In this document: positions 2,052 to 57,935 of the stretch, one piece after another
Numbering within the stretch: the first letter of the stretch is position 1
How the letters are laid out: each line of letters opens with the position of its first letter
From: a virus
Reading direction: 5' to 3' (one strand)
Length of the DNA: 64,000 bases
Virus record (IMG/VR): IMGVR_UViG_3300023174_000098
Coordinates: 1 to 64,000 of that record
Made by a program: the position numbers and the translations under genes
Notes under the pieces: model-generated
What the model was told of the DNA's origin: nothing
The model's database searches: none
The model's input: only the letters and a program-made list of their open reading frames with translations

Positions 2052-5000
2052 TTAACCATAATTTTGAGAGAAACTACCATACCAATAAGTTCCATCACTA
2101 ATGAAACTATAAATATCAACCTTGCTTGCTGTTATAGTTGCGGTGGGAGTTGCACTATCGGCCCATCTTACACCAGTAAACGTTGCCGTATAGTTTCCAC
2201 TGCCACTATTCAAGAATAATGAGAAACTCTTTCCGGCAGTTGCTGTGGGCATAGTAAAAGTGCAGTTTCCGGTTAGGGTACAAGTATGAACAGTGCCACT
2301 TGTTAAATCTATAGTCTTACTAGTTCCACTATTTCCAATAACAACAACTCCTTCAGTAAAACTGTTAAAAGATATTCCGCTTACCGAGAGAGTGGTCCCG
2401 TTGAAAGTCATGTTTGAGCTTCCGGCAGGAATATTAGATGCATCTTTATAAACAACTTGATTAGCAGATCCGGCTACAGTGCCAGTTGTTCCTTGAGTTC
2501 CTTGTAAACCTTGAGTTCCTTGTAAACCTTGTATACCTTGAGTTCCTTGTGTGCCTTGAGTTCCTTGTGTACCTTGATTTCCTTGTAAACCTTGAGTTCC
2601 TTGTAGTCCTTGTATACCTTGAGTTCCTTGTGTGCCTTGAGTTCCTTGTGTACCTTGATTTCCTTGGATGCCTTGAGTTCCTTGTAAGCCTTGAGTTCCT
2701 TGTAAACCTTGAGTTCCTTGTAAACCTTGAGTTCCTTGTAAACCTTGAGTTCCTTGCAGACCTTGAGTTCCTTGTAAACCTTGAGTTCCTTGACTACCAT
2801 TTGATCCATTAGTCCCCTGTCTTCCTTGAACCCCCTGAGGGCCTTGGACGCCCTGAAGCGCAGCAGTTGACACTGCCACCCACTGTATTCCTTGAACGGT
2901 TGACATGAGAACAGTGGAAGTTGTCCCCGCACTGTCGTCCTTGTCGTAGAGTACGTTCTTGACTCTGAGGCTCTCAACGAACGTGGTGTTGGCCCTGTTG
3001 GCGGTTATGCCGGAGCCAATAATGTGCGCATTGGATTGATTATTTGTGTTGTTCGTTCTACCGGCCAAAACGCTGGAGTAGCTGCCGCTAGCGGTGTTGC
3101 TCTGCCCGCCGCCGACGAAAGATTGCGTACCGCTGGCCGAATTTTGATAACCGCTGCCGACAAAACTTTGCTGCCCTCCGGCCGAGTTCTGGTATCCGCC
3201 TGCGACAACGCTTTCGTTGCCGCCGGCCGAGTTTTGATGACCGGCGGCAACGCCGCAATAGCCGCTAGCGGTGTTGCTCTTGCCGCCGCCGACGGTGCTG
3301 TATTGGTTGCTTGCTGTGTTGCTTTTACCGCCGCCGACGTGGCTGATATATCCGCTGGCGGAGTTGTAAAGTCCTCCGGCAATAGCACTCCCATATCCGC
3401 TGGCGCTGTTGCTCCATCCTCCACCAACGAAACTTCTGTTCCCTCCGGCAGAATTTGTATAGCCTCCGCAAACGGCCGAAAGGGGTCCGTTGGCGACATT
3501 AAACCATCCACCAGCAACCGTGCTGTAGTCGGCACTGGACGTGTTGGCTCTACCGCCGCAAACGGCACTGTATTGTCCGCTGGCTGTGTTTTTGTAACCG
3601 CCGCCGACGGTGCTGTTAATGCCGCTGGCGGTGTTGTAGTAGCCGCCGCCGACGGTGCTTTTATCTCCGCTAGCGGTGTTTTGCCGCCCGCCGCTGATGG
3701 TGCTGTAGTTGTTGTTGGCAATATTGGCAATACCGTGAACGGTGCAGCCGACAATGTTGTCGGTTTCCGCCGTGTTCACTACAGTGATGCTATTTAAACC
3801 AGCCCCACTCGTGCCTACATCGCTTGATAGTGTTAATGTTACATTTGATCCGGATTGAACCGCTGTAAGAACGGTTTTTGTTGTCCAACCCCAAATCTCC
3901 TGCGTTGCGTCGTAGAATCTTATCTCCAACGCATTTGCAGTGGTGTTATCGAAATCGGTGGCCGTTGCGTTTAATACCGTAATGGTATTGGTAGTCTCTT
4001 GTATGTCATTTGCCCTTCTGACCTTCTGTGCGGCAACGTTGTTTCCACCGCTCACGAAAGAGAGTTTTGCGTGGGCAAGATTGCCGTAACCGCCGCTGAC
4101 GGTGCTGTAGTTGCCGCTGGCGGTGTTGTTGTTGCCACCGCTGACGGTGCTGTGGCTGTTGCTGGCGGTGTTTCTTACCCCGCCGGCGGCGACGCTATAA
4201 GAGCCGCTAGCGGTGTTGTAGTAACCGCCGCTAACAGTAGCCGCCGTATTAGTTGCTTGGTTTCCTATTCCTCCACCAACGGTAGTGTACTGGTCTGACG
4301 AAATGTTGCTCGACCCGCCGCTTACAGTGCTTGTCTCTCCGCTGGCGGAGTTTTGACGTCCTCCGCCGATTGCGCTGTATTGGCCGCTGGCGGTGTTGTT
4401 TCTGCCGCCGCTGACTGTGGCGTATGTATTGCTGGCGGTGTTGTTTCTGCCGCCGCCCACGGTGCTTCTCTCGCCGCTAGCGGTGTTATGTTGGCCGCCG
4501 CCGATTGCGCTGGCATATGCGCTAGCGGTGTTCATGTAGCCGCCGCCAACAGTCGATCCGTAGCCGCCGCTAGCGGTGTTGGCATAGCCGCCGCTGACTG
4601 TGGCGTATGTATTGCTGGCGGTGTTGCTCCTGCCACCGCTGACGGTGCTCATTAATCCCTGGGCGGAGTTCTGGAATCCGCCCGCCACCACGCCTTGAGT
4701 GCTTGAAGAAAATACTGACTGTATCCCGCCGATTATTTGGTTCGCCCTGAGCGTGAATCCGTCAAAGGTGAAAGTGCTGTCGCCCGCAGCAACGTTCGAA
4801 GAATTCTTGTATACGACTTGATTGGCGGATCCGGCAACGGGACCAGTGATTCCTTGAGTTCCTTGTAAACCTTGAGTTCCTTGCCGGCCCTGTAAACCTT
4901 GAGTTCCTTGTAAACCTTGAGTTCCTTGACTACCAGTTGTTCCTTGTAAGCCTTGAGTTCCTTGTGTTCCTTGAGTTCCTTGCAGACCTTGCAGTCCTTG

Positions 5001-6341
5001 TAAACCTTGAGTTCCTTGACTACCAGTTGTTCCTTGTAAGCCTTGAGTTCCTTGTAAGCCTTGTAAGCCTTGAACACCTTGTAAGCCTTGTGTTCCTTGT
5101 AAACCTTGTGTTCCTTGTAAACCTTGAGTTCCTTGTAAACCTTGAGTTCCTTGTAAACCTTGAGTTCCTTGTAAACCTTGTGTTCCTTGTAAGCCTTGTG
5201 TTCCTTGTAAGCCTTGTGTTCCTTGTAAGCCTTGAGTTCCTTGCAGTCCTTGTAAGCCTTGAGTTCCTTGCAGTCCTTGTAAACCTTGTGTTCCTTGTAA
5301 ACCAGTTGTTCCTTGTAAACCTTGAGTTCCTTGAGTTCCTTGTGTTCCTTGAGTTCCTTGAGTTCCTTGAGTTCCTTGAGTTCCTTGAGTTCCTTGAGTT
5401 CCTTGTAAACCTTGAGTTCCTTGTAAACCTTGAGTTCCTTGTAAACCAGTTGTTCCCTGTAATCCTTGAGTTCCTTGAGTTCCTTGAGTTCCTTGAGTTC
5501 CTTGAGTTCCTTGAGTTCCTTGAGTTCCTTGAGTTCCTTGTAAACCTTGAGTTCCCTGACTACCAGTTGTTCCTTGAGCAGAAATTATGCTCCATAAGTC
5601 TGTCCTTGTAGTAGGAGTGCAAGACGTACAACCTGCATAACTACTAAGATCAAGAGATACTCCTATATAAGAAGATCCATTATATGTAACTACATCATTT
5701 TGATAATAAGTGCTATCACCAGACCATGGTCCTCGAAAATTAAAGCCAACTCCCTGACTACCAGTTGTTCCTTGTGTCCCTTGTGGCACAAATAATCCCC
5801 ACTCGATAACCGTGAGGCCGGGCACTGATCCATTGACATCTTCAAATAATGCTATCCATAATTCATTATTATAAGAAACCACATCGTTCAAGGTATATTG
5901 TATGTCCTCCCACTCACCCCTCCAATTAAATCCCAATCCTTGTGTTCCCTGCAATCCAGAAGTTCCCTGTAGTCCTTGAATACCAGTTGTTCCTTGTAGA
6001 CCTTGCAGCCCTTGTGTTCCTTGAGAGCCAGTTACTCCTTGAACGCTTTGACTAGTAATCAAACTATATTGATCAACATTCCAGATATATAAACTAAAAT
6101 CATCTAATGTTAGATAAAAATTACCCGCATAACCAATTTCAGGAAGAGACGAGTAATCAGTAAATTTTAATAAAGTTCCCGAACTATAAGGAAGATCATT
6201 CCACAGAGTTTCTCCGTCACCAATTTTTATCCTATTGGTGTTCCATTCAAATCCGGGCTCCCCGGTACTTAATAATGTATTGGCCAGGGACCACTCAGAA
6301 TCTGTCCCTCTTCTAACTTGTATTAGTGTTTTTCTTGGCAT
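2052..6341 (-). CDS. Long tail fibre: Mtd-N-like cap, CBM5/12-like domains, collagen-like stalks, YadA-like head repeats
   Basis: This is a 1429-residue protein. Residues 1-55 (IQVRRGTDSEWSLAN ... IKIGDGETLWNDLPY) look like the N-terminal domain shared by many phage tail fibres and the major tropism determinant. A short collagen-like tract follows (about 98-135), then two W..Y..NDVV.YN..YI modules (about 138-255) resembling CBM5/12. A long G-x-Q collagen-like stalk (about 255-505) follows, with no Pro in its triplets. About 20 repeats of the 'SGGxxNTAS' type (about 560-1120, interrupted near 770-870) resemble YadA/trimeric-autotransporter head beta-rolls. A second collagen tract (about 1200-1335) and a C-terminal beta domain complete it. 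The fibre is probably trimeric. The ATG at 6341 is chosen over a TTG 3 nt upstream; the box CTATATATT lies 3 nt before the ATG. Confidence 0.85.
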   Translation of the reverse strand: MPRKTLIQVRRGTDSEWSLANTLLSTGEPGFEWNTNRIKIGDGETLWNDLPYSSGTLLKFTDYSSLPEIGYAGNFYLTLDDFSLYIWNVDQYSLITSQSVQGVTGSQGTQGLQGLQGTTGIQGLQGTSGLQGTQGLGFNWRGEWEDIQYTLNDVVSYNNELWIALFEDVNGSVPGLTVIEWGLFVPQGTQGTTGSQGVGFNFRGPWSGDSTYYQNDVVTYNGSSYIGVSLDLSSYAGCTSCTPTTRTDLWSIISAQGTTGSQGTQGLQGTQGTQGTQGTQGTQGTQGTQGTQGLQGTTGLQGTQGLQGTQGLQGTQGTQGTQGTQGTQGTQGTQGTQGTQGLQGTTGLQGTQGLQGLQGTQGLQGLQGTQGLQGTQGLQGTQGLQGTQGLQGTQGLQGTQGLQGTQGLQGTQGLQGTQGLQGVQGLQGLQGTQGLQGTTGSQGTQGLQGLQGLQGTQGTQGTQGLQGTTGSQGTQGLQGTQGLQGRQGTQGLQGTQGITGPVAGSANQVVYKNSSNVAAGDSTFTFDGFTLRANQIIGGIQSVFSSSTQGVVAGGFQNSAQGLMSTVSGGRSNTASNTYATVSGGYANTASGGYGSTVGGGYMNTASAYASAIGGGQHNTASGERSTVGGGRNNTASNTYATVSGGRNNTASGQYSAIGGGRQNSASGETSTVSGGSSNISSDQYTTVGGGIGNQATNTAATVSGGYYNTASGSYSVAAGGVRNTASNSHSTVSGGNNNTASGNYSTVSGGYGNLAHAKLSFVSGGNNVAAQKVRRANDIQETTNTITVLNATATDFDNTTANALEIRFYDATQEIWGWTTKTVLTAVQSGSNVTLTLSSDVGTSGAGLNSITVVNTAETDNIVGCTVHGIANIANNNYSTISGGRQNTASGDKSTVGGGYYNTASGINSTVGGGYKNTASGQYSAVCGGRANTSSADYSTVAGGWFNVANGPLSAVCGGYTNSAGGNRSFVGGGWSNSASGYGSAIAGGLYNSASGYISHVGGGKSNTASNQYSTVGGGKSNTASGYCGVAAGHQNSAGGNESVVAGGYQNSAGGQQSFVGSGYQNSASGTQSFVGGGQSNTASGSYSSVLAGRTNNTNNQSNAHIIGSGITANRANTTFVESLRVKNVLYDKDDSAGTTSTVLMSTVQGIQWVAVSTAALQGVQGPQGVQGRQGTNGSNGSQGTQGLQGTQGLQGTQGLQGTQGLQGTQGLQGTQGLQGTQGIQGNQGTQGTQGTQGTQGIQGLQGTQGLQGNQGTQGTQGTQGTQGIQGLQGTQGLQGTQGTTGTVAGSANQVVYKDASNIPAGSSNMTFNGTTLSVSGISFNSFTEGVVVIGNSGTSKTIDLTSGTVHTCTLTGNCTFTMPTATAGKSFSLFLNSGSGNYTATFTGVRWADSATPTATITASKVDIYSFISDGTYWYGSFSQNYG
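2480..2860 (-). repeat. DNA repeat encoding distal collagen-like tract
   Basis: Imperfect 9- and 18-bp tandem units (plus-strand CCTTGAGTT / CCTTGTAAA) encode G-T-Q and G-L-Q triplets in the fibre gene. Such arrays expand and contract by slippage, so stalk length may vary between relatives. Long open frames in the other reading directions here are artefacts of the repeat. Confidence 0.85.
3040..4690 (-). repeat. GC-rich repeat region encoding YadA-like head repeats
   Basis: Degenerate units of about 42-48 bp, each encoding a 14-16 residue motif of the form (S/G)GGxxNTASxxYSTV, run through the centre of the fibre gene. G+C is clearly above 50 percent here, against about one third in the flanking genes. 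An interruption near 3770-4060 encodes a non-repetitive domain. The compositional step suggests this module was gained from a different genome. Confidence 0.75.
4850..5577 (-). repeat. DNA repeat encoding the long collagen-like stalk
   Basis: A roughly 730-bp tandem array of 9-bp units, alternating CCTTGAGTT and CCTTGTAAA or CCTTGTGTT on the plus strand, encodes about 80 G-x-y triplets (G-T-Q, G-L-Q). There are no spacers, so this is not a CRISPR array. Homopolymeric stretches of identical 9-mers near 5330-5400 and 5465-5535 are likely slippage sites. Confidence 0.9.
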
Positions 6342-6387
6342 CAAAATATATAGTTTTTAACAGATATATATTTTAATATATGAAGAA

Positions 6388-7156: not shown

Positions 7157-7525
7157 TCACATCCCGGCGCTTGCTGATATTGCTGGGGTCCAGCCCTGCG
7201 TTAAAAACTTTATTAACTCTTCTCGAGTTAGATGATATTCAGTAGTATCTATATCGCTCTTATCTAATTTTTTATCACTTAAATAACTTCTTGATTTATT
7301 TTTAAGTCTTATATTTGCTCCGTGTTGTGTTAATGTGCCAGGAACAATCTCCCAACTTCCTAATTTATATGATTTATTTCCAAAAGATAAACCAGCAGCA
7401 ACCCAAGGTTCTTTTTCAAGAACCTTAACAATATCATTCCAGCTCATTCCTAATTCATCTCCCATTCCATTTTGAAGATAATCCGGAGTGTTCTCTAAAA
7501 ATTGTTTAAAACTAAGTAAATACAT
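7157..7525 (-). CDS. Small protein with capsid-targeting-like N-terminus (122 aa)
   Basis: It begins MYLLSFKQFLENTPDY; 'SFKQFLE' fits the shared tag of this phage. The remainder is soluble and mixed in charge, with no domain I recognise ('LEKEPWVAAGLSFGNKSYKLGSWEIVPG' region, written here in part only for location near residues 36-63). Upstream DNA is TATATAAGATATA directly before the ATG, without a Shine-Dalgarno site. It is the first gene of the small minus-strand cluster and diverges from the zinc-finger nuclease gene 23 nt away. An internal virion role is inferred from the tag. Confidence 0.55.
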   Translation of the reverse strand: MYLLSFKQFLENTPDYLQNGMGDELGMSWNDIVKVLEKEPWVAAGLSFGNKSYKLGSWEIVPGTLTQHGANIRLKNKSRSYLSDKKLDKSDIDTTEYHLTREELIKFLTQGWTPAISASAGM

Positions 7526-17007: not shown

Positions 17008-17937
17008 TTAATTGTTTTTAACCCATTCTTCAAATTGATTTGGATCTATAATACCGAAACCTTCGAAAAACTTTTTACCTGCAAAATCTTTATTTTTTAA
17101 AGACATTGTCTTTTTTCTAAAAGCTTTTCTATAGTCGTTATCATTATCCAAAACTAATCCTGTACTATTATTTCTAACGTAGGATAACAACAAGGCAGCA
17201 CACCCAACAGCAAAGGGGGTGCTCATGCTTGTTCCACTCATATATGCATACCAATTAGTTGGGACTGTGCTAAATATTTTGACTCCAGGGGCCAAAAAAT
17301 CTAAATCCTCACCAGTACAACTAAAACTAGCTCTTTCAAAGTTTTGGTCTATGGATCCGATTCCTATAGTCTCGGGATAATTTGCCGGGTAGTATATCTC
17401 TCTTGTGGAGCCTGCGTTGCCGGCAGCACAAAATGTAATACACTTTTTGGATAAAGCATATTGTATAGAACTTCTAATGCTTGGCACATGTCCCGGGGAT
17501 CCCAAACTCATAGTTATAAAATCAGAACCTTGATCTGCAGCCCATCTGATGGCTTCTGCTATATTATCCATATTGCCACTGCCGTTATCGTCCAACGCCT
17601 TAATAGGTATAACTTTAGATTTAGGGGCAACTCCAATTACACCAACATTATTGTTTTCGGCGCATATGGTTCCTGCGACATGGGTGCCATGAGAATTATA
17701 ATCCATTGGATCTTTGTTTTTATTAACAAAATTTCTACCTTGTAAAAGATTATTTTTCAAATCTTCATGATTAAGATCACAACCCGTATCTATTACGGCT
17801 ATCTTTACCCCTTCGCCTTGAGACAATTTCCATTTATCAGGAAGATTAAATGTAGTAATCTCCCAGCCAGCAGCCTGCCTGACTTCCTGTATGGAATAAA
17901 CATCTTCTCTTGTATATGGTAATAAATTACACTTCAT
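17008..17937 (-). CDS. Subtilisin-like serine protease (S8 peptidase, 309 aa)
   Basis: The complete triad is visible: Asp50 in 'IAVIDTGCD', His83 in 'NSHGTHVAGT' and Ser237 in 'SGTSMSTPFAVG', with the oxyanion Asn174 in 'AAGNAGS'. Length matches a single S8 domain with a short N-terminal extension (residues 1-40) and no signal peptide, so the enzyme would start in the cytosol or be packaged. AAAGGAGG lies 6 nt before the ATG. It overlaps the upstream membrane-protein gene by 11 bp, implying coupling. Possible roles are virion protein maturation or host-protein degradation; no substrate can be read from the sequence. Confidence 0.9.
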   Translation of the reverse strand: MKCNLLPYTREDVYSIQEVRQAAGWEITTFNLPDKWKLSQGEGVKIAVIDTGCDLNHEDLKNNLLQGRNFVNKNKDPMDYNSHGTHVAGTICAENNNVGVIGVAPKSKVIPIKALDDNGSGNMDNIAEAIRWAADQGSDFITMSLGSPGHVPSIRSSIQYALSKKCITFCAAGNAGSTREIYYPANYPETIGIGSIDQNFERASFSCTGEDLDFLAPGVKIFSTVPTNWYAYMSGTSMSTPFAVGCAALLLSYVRNNSTGLVLDNDNDYRKAFRKKTMSLKNKDFAGKKFFEGFGIIDPNQFEEWVKNN

Positions 17938-22530: not shown

Positions 22531-23031
22531 ATGGCGTCAGAGTATCTTAATAATAAAAATCTTGAGAAAACAATAATTATATTTCAAAAAGCAAAAAGAG
22601 ATAAAAAGTTATATAATTTCTTACAAGAAGACATAAAGAAGAGAGAAGATAAAGTAAAAATTGAACTAAAAGATTTAGTGAATAAGAAAAATTCTGAGAT
22701 ATTGAATGTTTACGAGGTAACGCAAAATAATCTAGCGATTGCATTTTACACGTTATCTGAAAATATAGTCCGATATGCAAAATTTAATTTAATTGATATA
22801 GATGATGCGGTTCAAGAAGGAGTATTGGTTTGCTTTGAAAAACTGGACAGGTTTAATCCTAAGATAGGAAAAGCATTCAACTATATGACAACATGCATAC
22901 TAAATCACTTTAAGCAGTTGTATAGGTCTGCACGGAACTACAATGAACTCAAGAAGAGATATCAAGACTTCATGATGAAAGAAGTGGAAAGCGAAATATG
23001 CTGTTCCAAGACACCTAGAAGAAGCGAGTAG
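22531..23031 (+). CDS. Late-transcription sigma factor, T4 gp55-like (166 aa)
   Basis: Residues 70-135 ('FYTLSENIVRYAKFNLIDIDDAVQEGVLVCFEKLDRFNP', partly shown; 'AFNYMTTCILNHFKQLYR') match sigma region 2 as in gp55 of T4-like phages, with a basic C-terminal tail. gp55 directs host RNA polymerase to late promoters with a TATAAATA-type -10 box and no -35. The AT-rich boxes just before many structural genes in this window may be its targets. It is a lone plus-strand gene whose stop nearly abuts the convergent gene. Confidence 0.75.
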   Translation: MASEYLNNKNLEKTIIIFQKAKRDKKLYNFLQEDIKKREDKVKIELKDLVNKKNSEILNVYEVTQNNLAIAFYTLSENIVRYAKFNLIDIDDAVQEGVLVCFEKLDRFNPKIGKAFNYMTTCILNHFKQLYRSARNYNELKKRYQDFMMKEVESEICCSKTPRRSE

Positions 23032-23032
23032 A

Positions 23033-23494
23033 TTATTTTGGTCCAGTTTTCTTTTTAGCAGGTTTTAGTTCAATAGTTTTTCTATCTGGCTTGTCCTCTA
23101 AGCCTTTCATCATGCTATAGACTTCTTGAGCTATCTTAGATGCAGTATCATATTTGCAAGCATCTGTTTTGACAATCGACACAGTTTTAGTCATCTTTTT
23201 ATAAAAACCGCTACTTATCACAAAACATTTATTCTTGTGATCCCAGCTAACTACGCCTACCCATTCTCCTTCACTCCAATCCCCAGAGCTAATTAATAGT
23301 CTATATGGGGTTTCTGTGTATACATGTTTTGTGTGATATCCATAATTTTTAATTGCAGCACTCACATATCCAAGGCTTATTTTAGCATAAACATCCAGAA
23401 CCTCATCGGGGGATGTTCTGTAGTTCACACCAACACTATATCGTGTTTCCTCAGCAGCCTCGTTTATTTTTTTCCAATCTTTATATGATTTCAT
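23033..23494 (-). CDS. Predicted internal head protein with capsid-targeting-like propeptide (153 aa)
   Basis: It begins MKSYKDWKKINEAAEETR; 'SYKDWKKINE' followed by Ala closely parallels the T4 internal-protein tag and its (I/L)xE-A cleavage site. The remainder is a soluble domain with 'EGEWVGVVSWDHKNKCFVIS' near the centre and a basic Pro-Lys tail. It lies 5 nt after the neck gene on the same strand. Packaging into the head is inferred; the function of the mature part is unknown. Confidence 0.6.
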   Translation of the reverse strand: MKSYKDWKKINEAAEETRYSVGVNYRTSPDEVLDVYAKISLGYVSAAIKNYGYHTKHVYTETPYRLLISSGDWSEGEWVGVVSWDHKNKCFVISSGFYKKMTKTVSIVKTDACKYDTASKIAQEVYSMMKGLEDKPDRKTIELKPAKKKTGPK

Positions 23495-23499
23495 AATTT

Positions 23500-24360
23500 T
23501 TACATCATTTTTATGCTTGGTAGATCACCGAATCTAGTTATTAATCTCTCTTCCCAATCTTTTTTCTCTTGCAAGCCTTCTTGAAGAATAGTTTGACCAT
23601 CTAACTGAATTCCACCATTTGGTCCCGGAGGATTCTGTATTTTGGATCGGATTCTTCCCAACATTATTTTAGCAAAAGCCAAAGCTCCTTCTTGCATAGC
23701 TTGAGTCACCTGCGCAAAATCCGGCTTTCTCTGAAGGTAATGAACGGCTACCAAGTGAGTTCTATAAGGCACTGGGTAGAGTTTAATGTGTTTGTAACCT
23801 CCAATAAATTCCCACCCTCCTTGCTGACCACTTGTCCTATTATACATATCCTCATATTGTTTATATAATATCCATTCATTCATTTTTCCCCATACCGGCT
23901 GTTGAGGATTAATACCTCCTGCTATACTTCCGTAAGCCCCGGCACCCATATATTCCAAAGGTATTACACCACCAATATCACTTGCACTAAAGGCATATTG
24001 AGCAGTTTCTTTATATGCAACTTCTCTTATTATGCCCACATCGTCAGGCATTGCATAGACAGTTTGTCCTGGAATGGTAGGGAATACATACCACTGAAAA
24101 TACTCTCTAGGTGCGTAATCCTCTATGATTTGAAGGGAAAAGTCCACAGCCCCATCTAATTGTTGTTGGTCGAGTTCGATGCTGACTACCGGTGCCCCAA
24201 GCATCAATAAAACATAGTCTTTTATCTGCTCTCTAACTTTTTCTCTGTTTTTTCTTGGGGCGAGTGGAGTCAATGGATCTGTTGGGCCTAGATCATTCAT
24301 GCATTGACCTGTGCATTTTGCGTCTGTGGTCGGCCTTGGAATTTGTAAAATATTGCTCAT
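23500..24360 (-). CDS. T4 gp13-like neck/head-tail connector protein (286 aa)
   Basis: 'VREQIKDYVLLMLGAPVVSIELDQQQLDGAVDFSLQIIEDY' (residues about 42-82, partly shown) is the helical signature of neck proteins of gp13 type in T4-like phages, followed by 'KIMLGRIRSKIQN' and a Gly/Pro loop. It would sit between portal and tail. The DNA before the ATG carries ATATATATT 3 nt away, without a Shine-Dalgarno site. It diverges from the giant internal-protein gene. Confidence 0.65.
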   Translation of the reverse strand: MSNILQIPRPTTDAKCTGQCMNDLGPTDPLTPLAPRKNREKVREQIKDYVLLMLGAPVVSIELDQQQLDGAVDFSLQIIEDYAPREYFQWYVFPTIPGQTVYAMPDDVGIIREVAYKETAQYAFSASDIGGVIPLEYMGAGAYGSIAGGINPQQPVWGKMNEWILYKQYEDMYNRTSGQQGGWEFIGGYKHIKLYPVPYRTHLVAVHYLQRKPDFAQVTQAMQEGALAFAKIMLGRIRSKIQNPPGPNGGIQLDGQTILQEGLQEKKDWEERLITRFGDLPSIKMM

Positions 24361-24397
24361 ATAAATATATATATGATATACAAAAGGTAAAATTTAC

Positions 24398-27300
24398 ATG
24401 AATACATTCAAAGAATTTTTTAAGGCTAATCATGACTACTCAATTTTCTTAGAAATGGCCTATAGAGAACACGTAGTCAAAAGACCAGTATCTATAGATA
24501 ATGAAGATATTGACTTCCTTTATCAGGTAGATCAAAAAGATTGGCCTGAGGCTTTAAAAACAAGGTATGATATATTATACAAATTATTAGAAAATAGAGA
24601 TAAAGTCAGAAATAATATTAAAAAAGAATTATTCAAAGAAATAGAAAAATCTTTTGGCAAGAAGAAATTGGCAGGAATTAGAGATGAAGATTTTAATAAT
24701 AAATTTAAAAAATTAATATTAGATTTTGCGTCAAAATATAATGATTATGGAGGCCCAGGGCCAGGAGAATTTAATATAATAAAACTAACAGATTGGTTGG
24801 AGAATGATTTAGAGGATTATGATCTCAAAACCAAGATGAGTGAAATAGGATATAGATATTCTGATGTTAGAAATGCATTTAAAGATTTTGTATATTATAC
24901 AGTTGATGCAATAGTTCCATTTGTCAAAGAAGAAAAAGAAAAGTTTAAAGATAATTTCATAAATTTTTACATAAACAGATTAATACAAAAATTAGAGACA
25001 ACAAGAGGCAAAAATTATATAGTTCCAAATAGTAACTCATATAGCCCAGTCAATCTTCCAAATATAAAAAGTGTTTTACCATCAGAAGTTTCAAAGAAGA
25101 TGAAATTAGCATCATCAGGGGAATACGGTTTAGATCTATCTAATGTTAAAAAAACTTCTAGGGGCGGAAAACAAAGAGTGGGATCAAAAAGTTTTGCTTT
25201 CCCATCAGAGAATAATATAGGAAATACAGTTCGTCATTTATTAACATTAAACTTTCATAGACATCTAGGACCATTACCTTCGGATGAAAATTCATCCTCT
25301 TTCGATAAATTGGCCGACGAAGGAAAGTTTAAATATAAAATAGTAAGAGTTCACGATAGATCAAAAGATTCAACTCACGATCAAAAGAAAAAACAAAAAG
25401 ATAATTATATCCCACAACAAAAAGAAAATGGAATAAAGAATAACATAAGTAGAATATTGAGTAGAGCGCAAAGTGGAGATTATAAAAATTGGGATGATCC
25501 TAAATTAAGTGATCTTTGGGAAATTATTGGTAAAAATAGCGAAGCAACCGATGGATCTTGGTTTGAAAAAGCAGGGCTGGATAATGAAGCAGATCTAATA
25601 GGTATTTTTGGCAAAGAACCAATTAATATAAATGCAAAGGGAGATACTTTGCCTGCATGGAAAGTAGCAAAAAGTGAAAGATGGTTCAGAGAATTAAAGA
25701 CTCCTCGTGGAGGTGGTGTGGCAGGTAATGCAAAACTTAAAAGAAAATTTAGTGAATATTTTGCAAAATTAGTAACGATGCAAATACTTTCATCGAATAA
25801 ACAATTAACCCCACAGATATTAAGCGACAAAGAGACAGAAGAATTTTCTGACGGTGGCCATCCCAGGATAGATAAAGAAGAATTAGATCAGATTGAAAAA
25901 TCTTTAACTCCTGAACAATTTGAAATATTTAAGAAAACAGGGAGACTACCGTATTCGCTAAAACAGGATGGAAAAAATCCAGAAATAACAATAGGAAAAA
26001 ATCCAAGAACTGGCGAGTCTCAATCAGCATTCTTGATGCTTCCAACTATCAAGCACACAGTCGATATAACAGACAAAGATGGAAATAAAATAGGAGAAAA
26101 AACCATAAATCTTCCAGTTGTAAATGGATCTAGATTTATAAAAAATACACCATCAAAGCTGAAAGATTCTGAGGATGATGAGGATGTTAATCCTGAAGAT
26201 GATTTAGAGTCGGGATATTCTAAGCCAATAACAACAACAAGAAGTTCAAGTGAAATAAAAAGTATAGAAGAAATAGAAAAAATATACGATAGAAATCCAG
26301 AAAAATATAAAGGAACAGAACTAGAGGCTGCTGTTAATGCTTACAGGAATTCAGATTCTGGTGGACTTTATACATACAACGGAAAAACCAAAAATGTTCA
26401 AGATGGTTTTGTATTTGATGATATTAGCAATAAAATGTATTCAATTGATGATTATCAGCATGGTGCAAGTGGCGTTGAAGGAGCACACTTCAGACAAGAA
26501 GAAAGCGGAGAACAACCAGAAACTGCCGTAAAGAAGACAGCAAGAAAAAAATTAAGCGGGGTATTTGGACAGATAAAAGATTCTAAAGACTTAACTCCAA
26601 CTTTAATAAGACTTGGTTATAGATCCAAAATTGGCCTATTCTCAGAAGATCCGGCAGAAGGATATAAACCAATGAGATGGGCAGATTTCAAAATAGTTAG
26701 ATATGGAGATAATTATTCCAATGATGAAGAAGGGGATTCCGACGAATCCGGATCGGCAGGTACTAAAGTCAGAGATATAGTAGTATCAAATGATGGAGAT
26801 GGCGATATACAAGGATATTATGAAATAATAAAAGGAATATCTCAATGTCTTTTATCCAAGGGTGCAAGATCTTGTGGCACAGAAATAAAACAAGCAGTTA
26901 AAAACAAAATATTAAATGATATAGATTTAATAGAAAAAGCACACGACTTTATTGCAGAGCTACTGATAAACAATATCTCCAAAAAAGATTTCAAGGAACC
27001 TATAAGTAGAGAAAAATTTACAAATTCAGAACTTGGAAAAGTCCTGCAGAGCCCGGCGTTCGGACAAAAATCAAGAAAAACTAGAGAGTATCTAGCATCT
27101 TCAGATGAATCTGATGTGGATGCAACAGGACACCCATTCAGAAAAGATTCAGTAGAAAAGGAAGAAAAACCAAATTCAAATAAACCAAAAAGAGACTTAA
27201 TAGAAGATAAATTTCTTGAAACCATATTTGACTTCCCAGGAAAAGAGAATCAAGCAAAAAGTCTCTCAAAAGGAAATATAGATAAAGCAAGAGAAGAGCT

Positions 27301-28024
27301 GGCTAAATTACTGGAAGATCCTGAGCAGGGAATAGCAGCTAAATTAAATGAATATTCTGGCTTGGCTCAAGAATTAGATGGATATGAAAAAATATCGGAT
27401 CAAGATAGGAGGAGTTTATTAAATAAAATAAACAAACAAAAAAATCAACTATTAGAATATTTAAGTGGACTAGTGATGGGTCCAACAAGTTCCGGAGTAA
27501 GAAGGAAGATAGTTTTAGATTATTATCAACAAATAGAAAGAAAATTAAATAAAATTCCAAAGGAAGTTATTGTTGTATCCTCCCCGGAAGAAAAAGTTCA
27601 ATCCACAGAAAAACCTCAAGAAAAAATGGATTTAGTATTTTCTGTCGTAAGGGATATAGCTTCAAAAAACATGTTGGTATTACCCAAAAGTAAAAATTTA
27701 ATAAATATAATAAACAGTTTAAATATGCATGAAAAAGAAGTTGAAATTCATAAGTCAGCAGTAGAAGTTGCTGTATCATTATTTTCACAAATAAAAGATG
27801 TAGTCCTAATAAATAAATTTATCAAAGATGAAAGTCTGGATGTTAAAATCAATAAATTTAACTTCATTTGCGACTCTTTAGCCAAACTCGAGTCTGTTGG
27901 CATAAAAAGCAAAGAAATAGATTCTATGAAGAATAATCTTAGAATTGTATGGAAAGATCTAACCGATCAAAATATTAAGCTAAAGGGAACTAGGCCCTCA
28001 ACGCCAAGATTTATACAAAACTAA
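24398..28024 (+). CDS. Giant (1208 aa) predicted internal virion protein with capsid-targeting-like N-terminus
   Basis: It begins MNTFKEFFKANHDYSIFLEMAYRE: aromatic-x-x-aromatic at 4-7 and FLE at 17-19. The protein is Lys/Asp/Glu/Ser-rich and mostly helical, with disordered acidic stretches (near 585-605 and 765-785) and coiled-coil-like segments near 950-1050. 'WFRELKTPRGGGVAG' (near 430) may belong to a folded core; I see no confident enzyme motif, including no clear ADP-ribosyltransferase site. AAAGG precedes the ATG. T4 Alt is a known example of a large packaged and injected enzyme, and this protein has the size and tag expected of such a class. The function is unknown. Confidence 0.6.
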   Translation: MNTFKEFFKANHDYSIFLEMAYREHVVKRPVSIDNEDIDFLYQVDQKDWPEALKTRYDILYKLLENRDKVRNNIKKELFKEIEKSFGKKKLAGIRDEDFNNKFKKLILDFASKYNDYGGPGPGEFNIIKLTDWLENDLEDYDLKTKMSEIGYRYSDVRNAFKDFVYYTVDAIVPFVKEEKEKFKDNFINFYINRLIQKLETTRGKNYIVPNSNSYSPVNLPNIKSVLPSEVSKKMKLASSGEYGLDLSNVKKTSRGGKQRVGSKSFAFPSENNIGNTVRHLLTLNFHRHLGPLPSDENSSSFDKLADEGKFKYKIVRVHDRSKDSTHDQKKKQKDNYIPQQKENGIKNNISRILSRAQSGDYKNWDDPKLSDLWEIIGKNSEATDGSWFEKAGLDNEADLIGIFGKEPININAKGDTLPAWKVAKSERWFRELKTPRGGGVAGNAKLKRKFSEYFAKLVTMQILSSNKQLTPQILSDKETEEFSDGGHPRIDKEELDQIEKSLTPEQFEIFKKTGRLPYSLKQDGKNPEITIGKNPRTGESQSAFLMLPTIKHTVDITDKDGNKIGEKTINLPVVNGSRFIKNTPSKLKDSEDDEDVNPEDDLESGYSKPITTTRSSSEIKSIEEIEKIYDRNPEKYKGTELEAAVNAYRNSDSGGLYTYNGKTKNVQDGFVFDDISNKMYSIDDYQHGASGVEGAHFRQEESGEQPETAVKKTARKKLSGVFGQIKDSKDLTPTLIRLGYRSKIGLFSEDPAEGYKPMRWADFKIVRYGDNYSNDEEGDSDESGSAGTKVRDIVVSNDGDGDIQGYYEIIKGISQCLLSKGARSCGTEIKQAVKNKILNDIDLIEKAHDFIAELLINNISKKDFKEPISREKFTNSELGKVLQSPAFGQKSRKTREYLASSDESDVDATGHPFRKDSVEKEEKPNSNKPKRDLIEDKFLETIFDFPGKENQAKSLSKGNIDKAREELAKLLEDPEQGIAAKLNEYSGLAQELDGYEKISDQDRRSLLNKINKQKNQLLEYLSGLVMGPTSSGVRRKIVLDYYQQIERKLNKIPKEVIVVSSPEEKVQSTEKPQEKMDLVFSVVRDIASKNMLVLPKSKNLINIINSLNMHEKEVEIHKSAVEVAVSLFSQIKDVVLINKFIKDESLDVKINKFNFICDSLAKLESVGIKSKEIDSMKNNLRIVWKDLTDQNIKLKGTRPSTPRFIQN

Positions 28025-28037
28025 CTAATTTAAATTT

Positions 28038-28295
28038 ATGGACTTTTTGAAGAGTAATAGAAATCATTTTATTAAAAAGAATATATTTGAAATACTAAAA
28101 GAAAGATTTAGTAGAAATGAAAATATATTAGACCGAATATTATACCATCTGGCTACCGACCAAGATATCAAGGATTTCAATAAATTAGTGGCAGATATTT
28201 ATGAAGTAGCATACACCAAATGTGTAGAAGATCATCGTAAGAAATTTGAAGAATTAGGTTATAAAGTAAATATAGTAGCGGACCAAAATTCTTAA
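28038..28295 (+). CDS. Small helical hypothetical protein (85 aa)
   Basis: This soluble, charged helical protein lies 13 nt after the giant gene. No motif is recognised. It may share its transcript, and the methyltransferase gene follows after 12 nt. Confidence 0.55.
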   Translation: MDFLKSNRNHFIKKNIFEILKERFSRNENILDRILYHLATDQDIKDFNKLVADIYEVAYTKCVEDHRKKFEELGYKVNIVADQNS

Positions 28296-28307
28296 CTATA
28301 TTATGGA

Positions 28308-29114
28308 ATGGAACCATATTATAAAGATAAAAAAACCACATTATACAATAGTGATTGTTTAAGTGTGTTGGGCACAATAGGGCAAGAAACCGTTGACGTG
28401 ACCATAACCAGTCCTCCTTATAATCTAAATAAAAAATATAAGAGCTATAAAGATAAACTACCGTTGCAAGAGTATGTGGAATGGATAACAAATGTATCTA
28501 AAGAAATAAATAGAGTTCTTAAAAAAGATGGATCATATTTCTTAAACATAGGATACCAGAATACAAATCCAACAATACCTTTTCTAATATGCAATGAACT
28601 TACAAAAATATTTGAACTACAAAACACAATAATATGGGCTAAATCCATAACAGTAAATAATGAATCATTTGGTCATTTCACGCCAAATAATAGCAACAAA
28701 TATTTAAATAACTTTTTTGAGTATATGTTTCATTTCACAAAGACAGGCGAAAAGACTTTAGATAAATTATCTATTGGAGTTCCTTATAAAGATAAAAGAA
28801 ACATGGAACGATTCCAAAATAACAAAGACAAGGGTGATGTTAGATGCAGAGGAAACATATGGTTTATACCATATAGAACAACAAGATCTAAAGATGATAA
28901 GTTCAACCATCCAACAGCATACCCAGAAGAATTAGTAGAAAAATGTATAAAATTAAATGGACACAATCAAAGCACCACTGTATTGGATCCATTTTGTGGT
29001 AGCGGAACAACTTTAAAAGTTAGTTCTTATCTAAATTTAAATAGCATAGGAATAGAAATAGATAAAGATTATTGCGAAGTCACAAAGAACAGAATTAAAC
29101 AAACGAAGGAGTAA
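28308..29114 (+). CDS. Beta-class DNA methyltransferase, orphan (268 aa)
   Basis: Motif IV TSPPY (34-38) precedes motif I 'DPFCGSGTT' (about 228-236), the permuted order of beta-class N6-adenine/N4-cytosine methyltransferases; the Ser-Pro-Pro-Tyr form favours N4-cytosine but does not prove it. 'HPTAYPEELVEKCI' is motif X-like. No restriction enzyme gene is adjacent, so this is probably a self-protecting orphan modifier. CTATATTAT lies 3 nt before the ATG with no Shine-Dalgarno site. The 3' end overlaps the convergent gene by 20 bp. Confidence 0.85.
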   Translation: MEPYYKDKKTTLYNSDCLSVLGTIGQETVDVTITSPPYNLNKKYKSYKDKLPLQEYVEWITNVSKEINRVLKKDGSYFLNIGYQNTNPTIPFLICNELTKIFELQNTIIWAKSITVNNESFGHFTPNNSNKYLNNFFEYMFHFTKTGEKTLDKLSIGVPYKDKRNMERFQNNKDKGDVRCRGNIWFIPYRTTRSKDDKFNHPTAYPEELVEKCIKLNGHNQSTTVLDPFCGSGTTLKVSSYLNLNSIGIEIDKDYCEVTKNRIKQTKE

Positions 29115-36100: not shown

Positions 36101-36673
36101 ATGTCAAGTTTATCCAATATGGGAATAGGCAATCTGGGTAATGCCAACGCAATATTTAAGCGTAAATTCAGGTGGACCTTTCAATTAGAGACTCCCTGTG
36201 GCTCAATACCGGAAACAATTGTAAAGGTTGCCAATAGACCAAGTTTAACTATCGAAGAAACAGAAATAAACTACCTTCATGGTAAAATGTGGATTCCAGG
36301 CAAAGCAAGTTGGGAAACACTAACAGTTACATACTATGACGTAGTTAATGCTGGCGCTGGTGGCGATGTTGCCAATCTATACAGTTGGCTGTCAACAGTT
36401 TATAACTTTAACGATAAGTCCGGAAACGTAACTATGAGTTCTGTCAAAGCTGCCTATGCCGGTCTAGGAATTCTGACTATGTATGATGGTTGCGGAAAAG
36501 AAATGGAACGATGGGAGCTAGAGCATGTCTGGCCACAAAGTATTAATTTTGGTGATCTAGATTATTCAAGTTCAGAAGAATTGAATATCGAATTAACACT
36601 AAGATACTCAACAGCCAAGTACATGAATTCATGTGGAACAGCAGTTGCTGACTGTAAATGCAAGGGTTGTTAA
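36101..36673 (+). CDS. Tail tube protein, gp19-like (190 aa)
   Basis: 'FKRKFRWTFQLE', 'RPSLTIEETEINYLHGKMWIPGKASWETL' (partly shown), 'MYDGCGKEMERWELEHVWPQSINFGDLDY' and 'LTLRYSTAKY' are the tail-tube signature. AAGGAG lies 8-9 nt before the ATG. It follows the sheath by 35 nt, and a terminator follows 35-65 nt downstream. It ends with a Cys-rich tail (CGTAVADCKCKGC). It is likely the main tube subunit, made in bulk. Confidence 0.9.
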   Translation: MSSLSNMGIGNLGNANAIFKRKFRWTFQLETPCGSIPETIVKVANRPSLTIEETEINYLHGKMWIPGKASWETLTVTYYDVVNAGAGGDVANLYSWLSTVYNFNDKSGNVTMSSVKAAYAGLGILTMYDGCGKEMERWELEHVWPQSINFGDLDYSSSEELNIELTLRYSTAKYMNSCGTAVADCKCKGC

Positions 36674-36759: not shown

Positions 36760-37299
36760 ATGACTGCAAAAACAATGGGATTTGATTTAGGTTTGTCTGG
36801 GGGCAACACCTGTTTCAAAAGAAAATTTAGATGGATGTTAAAACTAGATGGGATCAGTGGAGAAGGCGTCAATGCATTACCTCCATTAAGATCTGCCCGT
36901 CCAAGTCTTAGTTTCAAAGAAATGGAAGTCCAACATTTAAATGAAACTATATTTTACCCTAGTAAGCCAGAATGGAAACCTTTTCCATTAAGTTTATATG
37001 ATCTTAAAAAAGCAGAAAAAAAAGTAAAAGATAAAACTGAAATAGTGGATATAAAAAATCCTGTGGTTGCATGGATAAAATCAATATATGATGCAAGTTC
37101 TGGGGACTGGAAACCAAGTTCTGGCTTTAAGCGAAATTGTACTTTGGAGATGTATGACGGGTGCGGGAATGTAATAGAAACATGGACGTTCGAGAATGCA
37201 TGGCCGCAAAACATAGAGTTTGGTGAATTAGACATGTCTAGTTCTGATGTTATGACTATAGATCTAACACTCAGATACGATAGAGCATATATAGAATAA
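36760..37299 (+). CDS. Second tail-tube-like protein (179 aa)
   Basis: 'CFKRKFRWMLKL', 'RPSLSFKEMEVQHLNETIFYPSKPEWKPF' (partly shown), 'EMYDGCGNVIETWTFENAWPQNIEFGELDM' (partly shown) and 'LTLRYDRAYI' align throughout with the preceding tube protein, so they are paralogues. It has its own start signal: CTATATAAT, 3 nt before the ATG. It could be a minor tube subunit, a tube initiator or a distal-end cap. Separate transcription from the main tube suggests different dosage. Confidence 0.8.
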   Translation: MTAKTMGFDLGLSGGNTCFKRKFRWMLKLDGISGEGVNALPPLRSARPSLSFKEMEVQHLNETIFYPSKPEWKPFPLSLYDLKKAEKKVKDKTEIVDIKNPVVAWIKSIYDASSGDWKPSSGFKRNCTLEMYDGCGNVIETWTFENAWPQNIEFGELDMSSSDVMTIDLTLRYDRAYIE

Positions 37300-54098: not shown

Positions 54099-54971
54099 AT
54101 GCTTAGTTACAAGGACTGGAAAAATCTAAACGAGTCAGTTTTTTCATCTGCTTTTAATCTGGGTGTGAGACCCATGCAGAATGTAGGTCTAGCGGCCCCA
54201 ACTGGTGTAGAGTTAGAAGAAAAGAAAAATGTAGATGTCGAAGAAGACGAAGAGGACGGCGAGATCGTTAAGGTTGCCGCTGAAAAAGATAAACCCGGTT
54301 CTGGTGGGTGTGGATGCAGTAAATGTAGCAAATGTGCCTGCAGTAGCAAAAAAATGGATTCAGATGAAGACGACGCCGACCTAGAGAAAGAGGAGAAAAA
54401 AGATGATAAAAAAGATAAAAGAAAAGATAATGAAGATGGTGGACATGATGAAGAGGATTCTGACGAAGACTCAGACGAAGACGAAGAATCCGACGAAGAC
54501 GAAGACGAAGACGAAGACGAAGACGAAGAAGAGGTAAAAGAAGAAGGACTTACTGAAAAACAAAAGAAACTTCCCAAGGCATTGCAAGATGCAATTCTTA
54601 AAAAGAATAAAAGTAAAAAGCATGAAGATGAAGATGAAGATGAAGATGAAGATGAAGATGAAGATGAAGATGAAGATGAAGATGAAGAAGGACTTACTGA
54701 AAAACAAAAGAAACTTCCCAAGGCATTGCAAGATGCAATTCTCAAAAAGAATAAAAGCAAAAAAGTAAAAAAAGAGGAAGTCGCAACAGACAGCGAAACA
54801 GAGTCAGAGGAATCGTGGTGGAACAGCTTTAATAATCAAACCGCACCAGTTCAGATGAAATGGGATAGCGGTTATGGCGAATATGATATTGCCAATGCAG
54901 AGGTTCCAACCGATGCTAAGCCAGGAGATGTTGGCTTTGCCCCACAAGGTAAAATAGGGGATATTAAGTAA
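54099..54971 (+). CDS. Acidic repeat protein with capsid-targeting-like N-terminus (290 aa)
   Basis: It begins MLSYKDWKNLNESVFSS; 'SYKDWKNLNE' then Ser matches the shared tag and an LxE cleavage site. A Cys cluster (CGCSKCSKCACSS, near 69-81) is followed by long Asp/Glu runs interrupted by two copies of 'GLTEKQKKLPKALQDAIL' and a folded-looking C-terminus with 'SWWNSFNNQ'. GAGG precedes the ATG by about 7 nt. Highly acidic packaged proteins may act as DNA mimics or counter-ion carriers; that role is speculative. Confidence 0.6.
   Translation: MLSYKDWKNLNESVFSSAFNLGVRPMQNVGLAAPTGVELEEKKNVDVEEDEEDGEIVKVAAEKDKPGSGGCGCSKCSKCACSSKKMDSDEDDADLEKEEKKDDKKDKRKDNEDGGHDEEDSDEDSDEDEESDEDEDEDEDEDEEEVKEEGLTEKQKKLPKALQDAILKKNKSKKHEDEDEDEDEDEDEDEDEDEDEEGLTEKQKKLPKALQDAILKKNKSKKVKKEEVATDSETESEESWWNSFNNQTAPVQMKWDSGYGEYDIANAEVPTDAKPGDVGFAPQGKIGDIK
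54462..54764 (+). repeat. GAAGAC/GAAGAT microsatellites and 144-bp-offset duplication
   Basis: Two hexanucleotide runs (54462-54530, 54622-54686) encode Glu-Asp repeats, and a unit of about 78 bp at 54543 recurs at 54687 almost unchanged. The two microsatellites use different Asp codons (GAC, GAT). The copies probably arose by tandem duplication. Confidence 0.85.
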
Positions 54972-56409: not shown

Positions 56410-57489
56410 TTATGCCCTAGTTAAGTAATTAGGTAAATAGTTTTCTTGTTGGGCCCACACGAGAATATTTTTTGCCCTACTTGCTGCTGTGTATGCCCAT
56501 CTTGTGTGGTCCCACATATCGCATTTCTCTTCTAAGACTATAACTGTGCTAAAACTATCCCCTTGTGCCTTGTGGGCAGTTATAGCATATGCATAGTCAA
56601 AAGGGTTGTCTTCTTGCTGGAACTCAAATTCATTTTTTTCTTTACCAAATTGATTATGATCATAAGGTATTTTATGATAAAGAATATCTCCTGATACAAA
56701 ACTAAATCTATTAAAAGTGTGAAGTTCTTTTACAATTCCTTGCATTCCGTTAAATAATTGTAGTCTTCTATTGTTTTTTAGGCATATAATTTTTTCATTT
56801 ATTGCTATGTGAGTTTCATTTAAGCCTAGGCTTTTTCTTATTTTTTCATTCGTATTAGACCTAGTTTTATTGAAAGCACAAATAACTTGTTCTGCTTTTG
56901 ACATACAAGAATCTTTCAATACATTCTTTTTTATTATCTTTACTTTTTTCTCTGATTTGAATGAATTGGGATTTTTACCTTTTCTCAAATGTTCTGCGAA
57001 GTGCGCTATCTCGCCCGCATTTCTATGAATGGTCTCTAGCTTATAATCTGGATCTTTCATTAAATTGAATTTACTTCCGATTGGCTCTAATTGCCCATGA
57101 TCTCCAATGTATATTATTGGCTTATTAAAGCTCAGCAGATCTTCATGTATTTCTTTTCCCACCATACTGGCTTCATCTATTATGAAACCTTCGTATGGAA
57201 TTTCTTCGGCTGGATACCGCAACCAAATTGTTTCTTCATCTTCTGTTTTAGCTGGGTAGTAGATCAGATTGTGTATTGTTCTTGCATCATGGTTGCCTTT
57301 TTGCCTAAGAACATTCGCAGCTTTACCTGTATATGCACCTAATGCCCAATTCTTCAATTTATGTCGGAGTATTTTTATGATGGTGGATTTACCGGTACCG
57401 GCTAAGCCGCCAATTCCCAAGAATTGATTATTATTAATGTTTTTTAAGACATTTCTAATAACTTCCTTCTGCTCCTCAGAAACAATCAT
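56410..57489 (-). CDS. Dda/RecD-like superfamily 1 helicase (359 aa)
   Basis: Walker A 'GLAGTGKST' (28-36), 'GFIIDEASMV' (motif II), 'IYIGDHGQLEPIG' (motif III), 'AYAITAHKAQGDSF' (motif V) and 'WAYTAASRAKN' (motif VI). This is the SF1B plan of T4 Dda and RecD2, a 5' to 3' helicase that helps replication initiation and clears bound proteins. It is shorter than Dda (439) and lacks part of the tower region. The start overlaps the upstream gene by 4 bp. Confidence 0.9.
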   Translation of the reverse strand: MIVSEEQKEVIRNVLKNINNNQFLGIGGLAGTGKSTIIKILRHKLKNWALGAYTGKAANVLRQKGNHDARTIHNLIYYPAKTEDEETIWLRYPAEEIPYEGFIIDEASMVGKEIHEDLLSFNKPIIYIGDHGQLEPIGSKFNLMKDPDYKLETIHRNAGEIAHFAEHLRKGKNPNSFKSEKKVKIIKKNVLKDSCMSKAEQVICAFNKTRSNTNEKIRKSLGLNETHIAINEKIICLKNNRRLQLFNGMQGIVKELHTFNRFSFVSGDILYHKIPYDHNQFGKEKNEFEFQQEDNPFDYAYAITAHKAQGDSFSTVIVLEEKCDMWDHTRWAYTAASRAKNILVWAQQENYLPNYLTRA

Positions 57490-57920
57490 TTTGTTTTACT
57501 GCCACGTTCCTTGACTTGAATATAAAACGCATAACTTTTTTTCGATGGGTCTGAATCTTTTCTTTCTGATTTTTTAAATAATAATTGGAGTTTTGTTTCT
57601 TTAGACTCCATGTTCAAAAATTGTTTTAATTTAGATAGGACAGAATATATGAACTTCGGCTGACCTGTAATTCTTATTGTGTCTTCATCAAATGTCGTTC
57701 CTTCATGGTCTTTGCTTATCGGGGTAGCCATTATAGGCATTTCTGGTATTCCACGCCAGTACTTTAAAATATCTTTCTTTTTGGCACTCCAACTTTTTTC
57801 TTCCGGTTCTATTTCGCTTGCAACCATATTTTGTTGGTATGCAATTGGCTGTTGGATATCTAGAGTATCTTCTTCTGGATTTTCTGTCTTTTCTTCCATC
57901 CATTTTTTAAAGCTTCTCAT
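57486..57920 (-). CDS. Predicted internal head protein (144 aa)
   Basis: From ATG 57920 it begins MRSFKKWMEEKTENPEED: 'SFKKWMEE' fits the shared tag; another ATG lies two codons upstream. The C-terminal half has 'IRITGQPKFIYSVLSKLKQFL' and a basic tail. It is co-transcribed with the Dda- and UvsW-like helicases. CATATATAT lies 4 nt before the ATG. Packaging is inferred from the tag. Confidence 0.6.
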   Translation of the reverse strand: MRSFKKWMEEKTENPEEDTLDIQQPIAYQQNMVASEIEPEEKSWSAKKKDILKYWRGIPEMPIMATPISKDHEGTTFDEDTIRITGQPKFIYSVLSKLKQFLNMESKETKLQLLFKKSERKDSDPSKKSYAFYIQVKERGSKTK

Positions 57921-57935
57921 ATACATATATATGAC

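What the first reader, a model, noticed from the sequence alone, without database searches (positions are those of the whole stretch)
24398..28024. 1208-residue candidate packaged effector of unknown function
Seen: it is the longest tagged protein, carries a Shine-Dalgarno site, lies beside the neck gene, and has disordered acidic stretches with coiled-coil parts but no enzyme motif I can name. Known: large injected phage proteins (T4 Alt, N4 vRNAP) are often enzymes that act at once after infection. A protein this large would be costly to keep if it were only filler.
Basis: partly seen in the sequence, partly recalled or inferred. Interest (0 to 1): 0.55.

Follow-up and report, generated by a model that had tools for sequence, protein, structure and literature searches.

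The report
Large tagged phage head-cargo protein
An uncultured giant relative of phage T4 carries a very large, fast-changing protein whose first 19 residues look like T4's tag for loading proteins into the virus head, so it is probably carried in the particle and delivered into the bacterium, although what it does there is unknown.

Summary
The ORF is real and belongs to an unannotated family (no PHROG, Pfam, NCBIfam, PADLOC or PDB sequence match) found divergently beside the gp13-type neck gene in 47 of 50 related IMG/VR loci (641-1372 aa).

Its start, MNTFKEFFKANHDYSIFLE|M, has the layout of T4 IPI (MKTFKEFTSTTTPVSTITE|A). Of 34 family members, 32 keep the aromatic i/i+3 pair and 24 a cleavage-like xxE|A/M site. 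The tag is the best-conserved stretch; relatives carry a gp21-type protease; a late-promoter-like TATATA element precedes the gene.

It is usually the fastest-evolving gene of its neighbourhood (48% identity where the neck is 98%), yet under purifying selection. The 664-aa homologue folds confidently (pLDDT 85) with no recognisable fold.

Best reading: a T4-type capsid-targeted internal head protein, ejected with the DNA and facing the host. Packaging is well supported by sequence; ejection and effector activity are inferred; enzyme activity is unsupported. Nine members keep the targeting aromatics but lack the stretch with the cleavage site, matching T4 data on targeting without processing.

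The parts
24398..28024 (+). 1208-aa protein (137.6 kDa), member of a new neck-linked family
24398..24454 (+). residues 1-19, capsid-targeting-like propeptide MNTFKEFFKANHDYSIFLE with aromatics at 4 and 7 and putative cleavage after E19
   Evidence: T4 determinants from PMC9026906 passages
24455..25297 (+). residues 20-300, most conserved part of the mature protein (near-invariant D37, L41, Q43, W49, A52, R56, E200, G244, D246, G265)
26165..26797 (+). residues 590-800, acidic, mostly disordered insert
27083..28021 (+). residues 896-1208: R896 is the last invariant residue; the C-terminal extension beyond it is barely conserved even in the nearest relatives
24360..24375 (.). AT-rich element TATAAATATATATATG in the gap between the divergent starts, late-promoter-like
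23500..24360 (-). gp13-type neck protein (head-tail adaptor Ad2), divergent neighbour
   Evidence: PHROG 211, E 5.8e-16
28038..28295 (+). 85-aa protein; a similar ORF lies directly beside the neck gene in L008 and L048, where the large gene is missing
   Evidence: similarity read from the sequences
22531..23031 (+). gp55-like late sigma factor, candidate reader of the TATATA element
   Evidence: PHROG 234, E 3.5e-4; PF04542, E 5.6e-6

Best explanation
This is a large internal head protein of a huge T4-like phage. Inferred steps: (1) it is made late, from a TATATA-type promoter region shared with the neck gene; (2) its N-terminal tag (aromatics at 4 and 7) docks it into the scaffold core of the prohead, as the T4 IP tags do; (3) the gp21-type protease cuts after E19 and leaves a 1189-aa mature protein in the head; (4) it leaves with the DNA, probably unfolded, and acts in the host at the start of infection, most likely against a fast-changing host factor such as a defence. 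Steps 1-3 rest on sequence evidence, step 4 on evolutionary rate and the T4 precedent. Its biochemical activity is unknown.
For: Tag: the same layout as T4 IPI; i/i+3 aromatic pair in 32 of 34 family members against a shuffle mean of 14.8, maximum 24; [LIVMFY]xE[AMSG] ahead of the core in 24 of 34 against a shuffle mean of 7.2, maximum 15; residues 1-19 are 89% identical in three sister pairs where the protein is about 50% identical, and 63% and 58% between the window protein and two relatives, the highest of all bins there. Protease: PF03420 in 8 of 16 records. Other core genes: a separate scaffold-like gene lies between protease and capsid genes. Late expression: TATATA within 60 nt upstream of 9 of 14 virion or tagged genes against 0 of 9 replication genes, p 0.0024, and upstream of the gene itself in 27 of 32 non-redundant relatives. 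Host-facing pattern: neck 97.6% against this protein 47.7% (L002/L003); it is the least conserved shared gene in 4 of 6 locus pairs; whole-gene dN/dS exceeds the neck's, mostly several-fold, in pairs where both could be computed. Folded rather than filler: pLDDT 84.8, pTM 0.77 for the 664-aa homologue.
Against: No virion, cleavage or ejection data exist. No PF03420 hit in the window's own 103.6-kb record, which may be a fragment. Ten of 34 members lack the cleavage-like site. The TATATA test was built after seeing this gene's own promoter region, and for tagged genes of the G001 genome it was not significant, 3 of 16 against 29 of 391, p 0.12. Whole-gene dN/dS stays below 1 in every pair computed, so there is no proof of an arms race. 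No enzyme or counter-defence domain was found. A looser tag pattern also hits unrelated T4 ORFs: 10 of 187, of which 3 are IPs.
Confidence: 0.58

Rival explanations
1. It is an internal core or portal-proximal assembly protein that is tagged and cleaved like IPs but works in head assembly, not in the host.
For: Conserved position beside the neck gene in 47 of 50 loci, one gene per record where found, a strongly conserved N-terminal 300 residues; T4 IPIII has an assembly role (PMC9026906 passages).
Against: Virion genes of the same loci are nearly frozen while this one drifts; missing beside the neck in L008 and L048; relatives have a separate scaffold-like gene.
Confidence: 0.25
2. It is a neck or tail component (connector, whisker-like or tape-measure) and the tag resemblance is accidental.
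For: Adjacency to the neck gene; shared late-promoter-like element.
Against: Tag statistics; a mixed alpha/beta model whose longest helix has 27 residues is unlike a tape measure; no PHROG matched more than 1 of 30 members, best E 0.0041.
Confidence: 0.1
3. It is a packaged enzyme with a new or unrecognised fold, like T4 Alt or a virion RNA polymerase in role (a special case of the best explanation).
For: Near-invariant polar residues (D37, R56, E200, D246, R896) on a confident fold; large packaged enzymes are known in other phages (T4 Alt: PMC9026906 passages).
Confidence: 0.2

Closest known systems
T4 internal proteins IPI, IPII, IPIII
   Same: N-terminal targeting tag with aromatics at 4 and 7 and an xxE|A-type site; in the window protein and IPI the E is residue 19; fast-evolving cargo
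   Different: T4 IPs have 95-193 aa and lie in variable loci; this protein has 1208 aa, a fixed place beside the neck gene, and no sequence homology was found to the IP cargo
T4 Alt (packaged ADP-ribosyltransferase)
   Same: large cargo with a cleaved N-terminal propeptide (PMC9026906 passages)
   Different: Alt starts MELITELF, a different tag; no ADP-ribosyltransferase profile matched here
SPN3US / phiKZ ejection proteins such as gp47
   Same: propeptide-bearing inner head proteins of giant phages (PMC5694885 passages)
   Different: several propeptides there exceed 100 residues and the phiKZ protease is the S80 type; here the tag is short and the protease S77; no homology was found
Polyvalent proteins (PMC5512222, seen in a search listing only)
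   Same: very large proteins thought to be delivered into the host (partly recalled)
   Different: defined by several recognisable domains; none was recognised here

Membership tests
T4-type CTS-targeted internal head proteins | N-terminal targeting sequence with the key residues 4 and 7 | tested here: met
   F4 and F7 in the window protein; i/i+3 aromatic pair in 32 of 34 members; determinants from PMC9026906
T4-type CTS-targeted internal head proteins | cleavage site for the gp21 protease at the end of the tag | tested here: met
   sequence motif only: IFLE|M in the window protein, 24 of 34 members; actual cleavage not testable
T4-type CTS-targeted internal head proteins | gp21-type (S77) prohead protease in the same phage | tested here: inconclusive
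   8 of 16 records positive, own 103.6-kb record negative
T4-type CTS-targeted internal head proteins | present in the mature head and ejected with DNA | not testable with these tools
   needs proteomics and infection assays
T4-type CTS-targeted internal head proteins | variable between relatives and dispensable | tested here: inconclusive
   fast evolution; absent beside the neck in L008 and L048, but both records are short
gp22-type scaffold | scaffold gene between protease and major capsid genes | tested here: not met
   this gene lies beside the neck; a separate 298-313-aa ORF holds the scaffold position in L106-L108 (assigned by position, not by profile)
Alt ADP-ribosyltransferase | ADP-ribosyltransferase domain | tested here: inconclusive
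   no Pfam match in 30 members and no fold match, but fold absence proves nothing
virion RNA polymerase | RNA polymerase catalytic domain | tested here: inconclusive
   no Pfam or PHROG polymerase match in 30 members

The most novel reading that the evidence does not exclude
A widespread clade of huge T4-like phages injects one giant protein of unrecorded fold, of up to about 150 kDa, encoded at a fixed core locus and rewritten much faster than the rest of the virion. Some lineages deliver it cut and others uncut, so it would be a core-genome host-takeover or counter-defence factor rather than an accessory one.
Probability: 0.3. Interest if true: 0.68.

Novelty: new variant of a known kind. 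Interest (0 to 1): 0.46.

Why it matters
T4 internal proteins are small, few and accessory. If this reading holds, the T4 packaging tag has been used in huge environmental phages to load a set of cargo proteins, one of them over ten times the size of IPI and fixed in the core genome. It supplies a sequence rule for predicting injected proteins in uncultured phages and a natural experiment (cleavable against uncleavable tags) on why phages trim their cargo.

Tried and rejected
Direct searches with the window protein gave nothing: PHROGs, Pfam, viral contigs, INPHARED phages. Three homologues also gave nothing in INPHARED beyond a chance hit at E 0.2. A profile of 30 members found no PDB sequence at E 1 or better. 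Structure matches were noise: PDB best E 0.69, BFVD best E 0.83 and 0.97, VIA best Z 4.3 and 4.6. These do not show that the fold is new; the middle of the protein was not folded and searched alone.

Rejected: a classical T4 late promoter TATAAATA as a general signal, because 1 of 82 window genes (this one) has it within 70 nt; the weaker TATATA element replaced it after the fact. Rejected: positive selection, because whole-gene dN/dS is below 1 in every pair computed and only one of 36 quarter-gene values exceeds 1, on very few changes. Rejected: tape-measure and scaffold roles. A loose tag pattern was rejected because it also fits non-IP T4 ORFs. The bS21 phage paper (PMC9723584, abstract and section 7 read) was not shown to cover this clade.

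Rows dropped: 48 family sequences (window plus 47) were reduced to 33 at 90% identity; alignment A1 used 30 of those 33, A3 used 34 of the 48. L021 is cut off at the neck.

Full report
Observation. The ORF at 24398-28024 encodes 1208 aa without interruption. Only 37 bp separate it from the divergent start of a gp13-type neck gene (PHROG 211, E 5.8e-16), and an AAAAGG stretch ends 10 nt before its ATG. Nothing in PHROGs or Pfam matches it meaningfully. Searched as a single protein it finds no relative in viral contigs or INPHARED.

A real family. Using the neck gene as anchor gave 50 IMG/VR loci. In 47 of the 50 an ORF of 641-1372 aa lies divergently next to the neck gene. The nearest, L002-L006, align with the window protein over about 800-1040 columns at 27% identity (E down to 1e-67 in a 48-sequence database). 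The 33 non-redundant members share a fingerprint: L41, A52, R56, D246, P573 and R896 in window numbering are invariant, and D37, Q43, W49, E200, G244 and G265 nearly so. The family also occurs in LR756511.1, a 595-kb uncultured phage record. Of 22 records searched, 13 have a match; the nine without include G006 and G007, which are relatives by tail sheath, and the cultured phages 121Q and Vibrio 2.275.O. Of the three neck loci without the gene, L021 is cut off at the neck, and in L008 and L048 the neck is preceded by an ORF like the window's 85-aa protein at 28038-28295; no family member was found in those two short records.

The tag. The window protein starts MNTFKEFFKANHDYSIFLE|MAYREH. T4 IPI starts MKTFKEFTSTTTPVSTITE|A, and IPII and IPIII MKTYQEFIAE|A; that IPI is cut after this E is recalled, not from a call. 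In T4, targeting depends mainly on residues 4 and 7 and processing on residues 8 and 10, and a change at residue 10 can stop processing while targeting persists (PMC9026906, passages). Among 34 family members (33 plus the LR756511.1 homologue), 32 have an aromatic pair spaced i/i+3 ahead of the core; shuffled segments gave 14.8 on average and 24 at most. Of the same 34, 24 have [LIVMFY]xE[AMSG] there; shuffles gave 7.2 on average and 15 at most. The ten without it are L026 and nine members of clades that begin MKLFSEY, MKLFLEY, MQLFQEY or MRLFNEY; all ten keep the aromatic pair. The nine have 22-25 residues before the core, so the stretch that holds the site elsewhere is missing, a natural version of targeting without processing. 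Phages of those clades keep cut-type tags on other proteins, for example MLNYEKWKKLNES in L032 and L042. The tag is the most conserved stretch: 89% identity in three sister pairs, with every 60-residue bin elsewhere lower, and 63% and 58% between the window protein and L002 and L003.

How specific the tag is. A tight pattern fits 11 of 128 ORF starts in the window's record (0 of 359 internal Met), 18 of 420 in the 343-kb relative G001 (3 of 1740), and in 122 kb of T4 exactly 3 of 187, namely IPI, IPII and IPIII. The pattern was narrowed after I had seen the T4 proteins, and this protein's G001 orthologue, whose pair starts at residue 15, does not fit it. A looser pattern, used first, fits 13 of 124 and 23 of 420 but also 10 of 187 T4 ORFs, only 3 of them IPs.

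Machinery. A gp21-type protease (PF03420) is found in 8 of 16 records. In L106-L108 it lies in T4-like order with a 298-313-aa ORF in the scaffold position and a 476-478-aa capsid-like ORF (assigned by position and look of the sequence, not by profile). The window's record lacks the protease but may be a fragment.

Timing. TATATA occurs within 60 nt upstream of 9 of 14 virion or tagged genes of the window, this gene included, and of none of 9 replication genes (p 0.0024). It precedes this gene in 27 of 32 non-redundant relatives, including the one in GC-rich G001 (56% G+C). The motif was picked from this promoter region, and for tagged genes in G001 the association was not significant. A gp55-like sigma lies nearby at 22531-23031.

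Evolution. Between L002 and L003 the neck protein is 97.6% identical and this protein 47.7%; the other shared genes of that stretch are 60-98%. It is the least conserved shared gene in 4 of 6 locus pairs, second in L031/L032 and fourth in L022/L030. dN/dS is mostly 0.1-0.5 against 0.00-0.14 for the neck among pairs with usable estimates, with higher values (to 0.86) in distant pairs where synonymous sites are near saturation. Fast change is thus clear; positive selection is not shown. In the L002-L006 group the first 320 residues change least and the C-terminal third most.

Structure. The 664-aa homologue from L031 is predicted with pLDDT 84.8 and pTM 0.77, mixed alpha/beta, with no long disordered part. 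The window protein's residues 1-915 reach 62.9 and 0.65: residues 31-140 and several later blocks are good, most of 590-800 is disordered. Fold searches found nothing convincing. This leaves the fold unidentified, not proven new.

Interpretation. The best account is a capsid-targeted internal head protein of the T4 IP class in layout, much larger, and fixed in the core genome of a huge-phage clade. T4 precedent shows that IPIII fusions to beta-galactosidase are packaged and delivered (PMC9026906, passages), so size is no bar, though a folded protein of this size should not fit a 30-angstrom portal. T4 Ip1, Ip2 and Ip3 are injected inhibitors of Type IV restriction (PMC12373910, abstract and passages), which makes a host-facing role the natural guess for a fast-evolving tagged protein. 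It remains a guess: no enzyme, inhibitor or counter-defence relative was found. Paper searches on huge phages with capsid targeting, internal proteins or prohead protease listed no description of this family; only listings were seen for most of those papers.

Noticed in passing
L115:2708-4357 (-), G001 122708-124357: A 549-aa protein with a tag-like start (MRFRRFLESIES) carries a Radical SAM domain (PF04055, E 2.8e-13): a candidate packaged Radical SAM enzyme.
   Followed up: partly
window 57936-58229, 54099-54971, 23033-23494, 57486-57926, 7157-7525: Further tagged proteins; those scanned had no useful family match. Likely orthologues of two (23033 and 54099) keep the tag in relatives, e.g. 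MKSYKDWKKINEA / MKSFKEWKLEES / MINYNEFIKALNEG.
   Followed up: partly
LR756511.1 526118-526534 and 242621-242989: Two separate S77 protease matches in one huge phage record, possibly a paralogue of the prohead protease.
   Followed up: no
window 36101-36673 and 36760-37299: Two adjacent tail tube genes of the same PHROG (4542).
   Followed up: no
window 28308-29114: N6/N4 DNA methyltransferase (PF01555, E 5e-53) sits between the 85-aa gene and the 187-aa gene; the compared loci L002-L006 show no room for it there.
   Followed up: no
window 17008-17937: Sequence resembling a subtilisin-like protease (VAVIDTGCDLNHEDL-type motif, recalled; no profile search run).
   Followed up: no
window 2052-6344 (-): 1430-aa collagen-like tail fibre with long overlapping ORFs on both strands, probably an effect of its repeats.
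   Followed up: no
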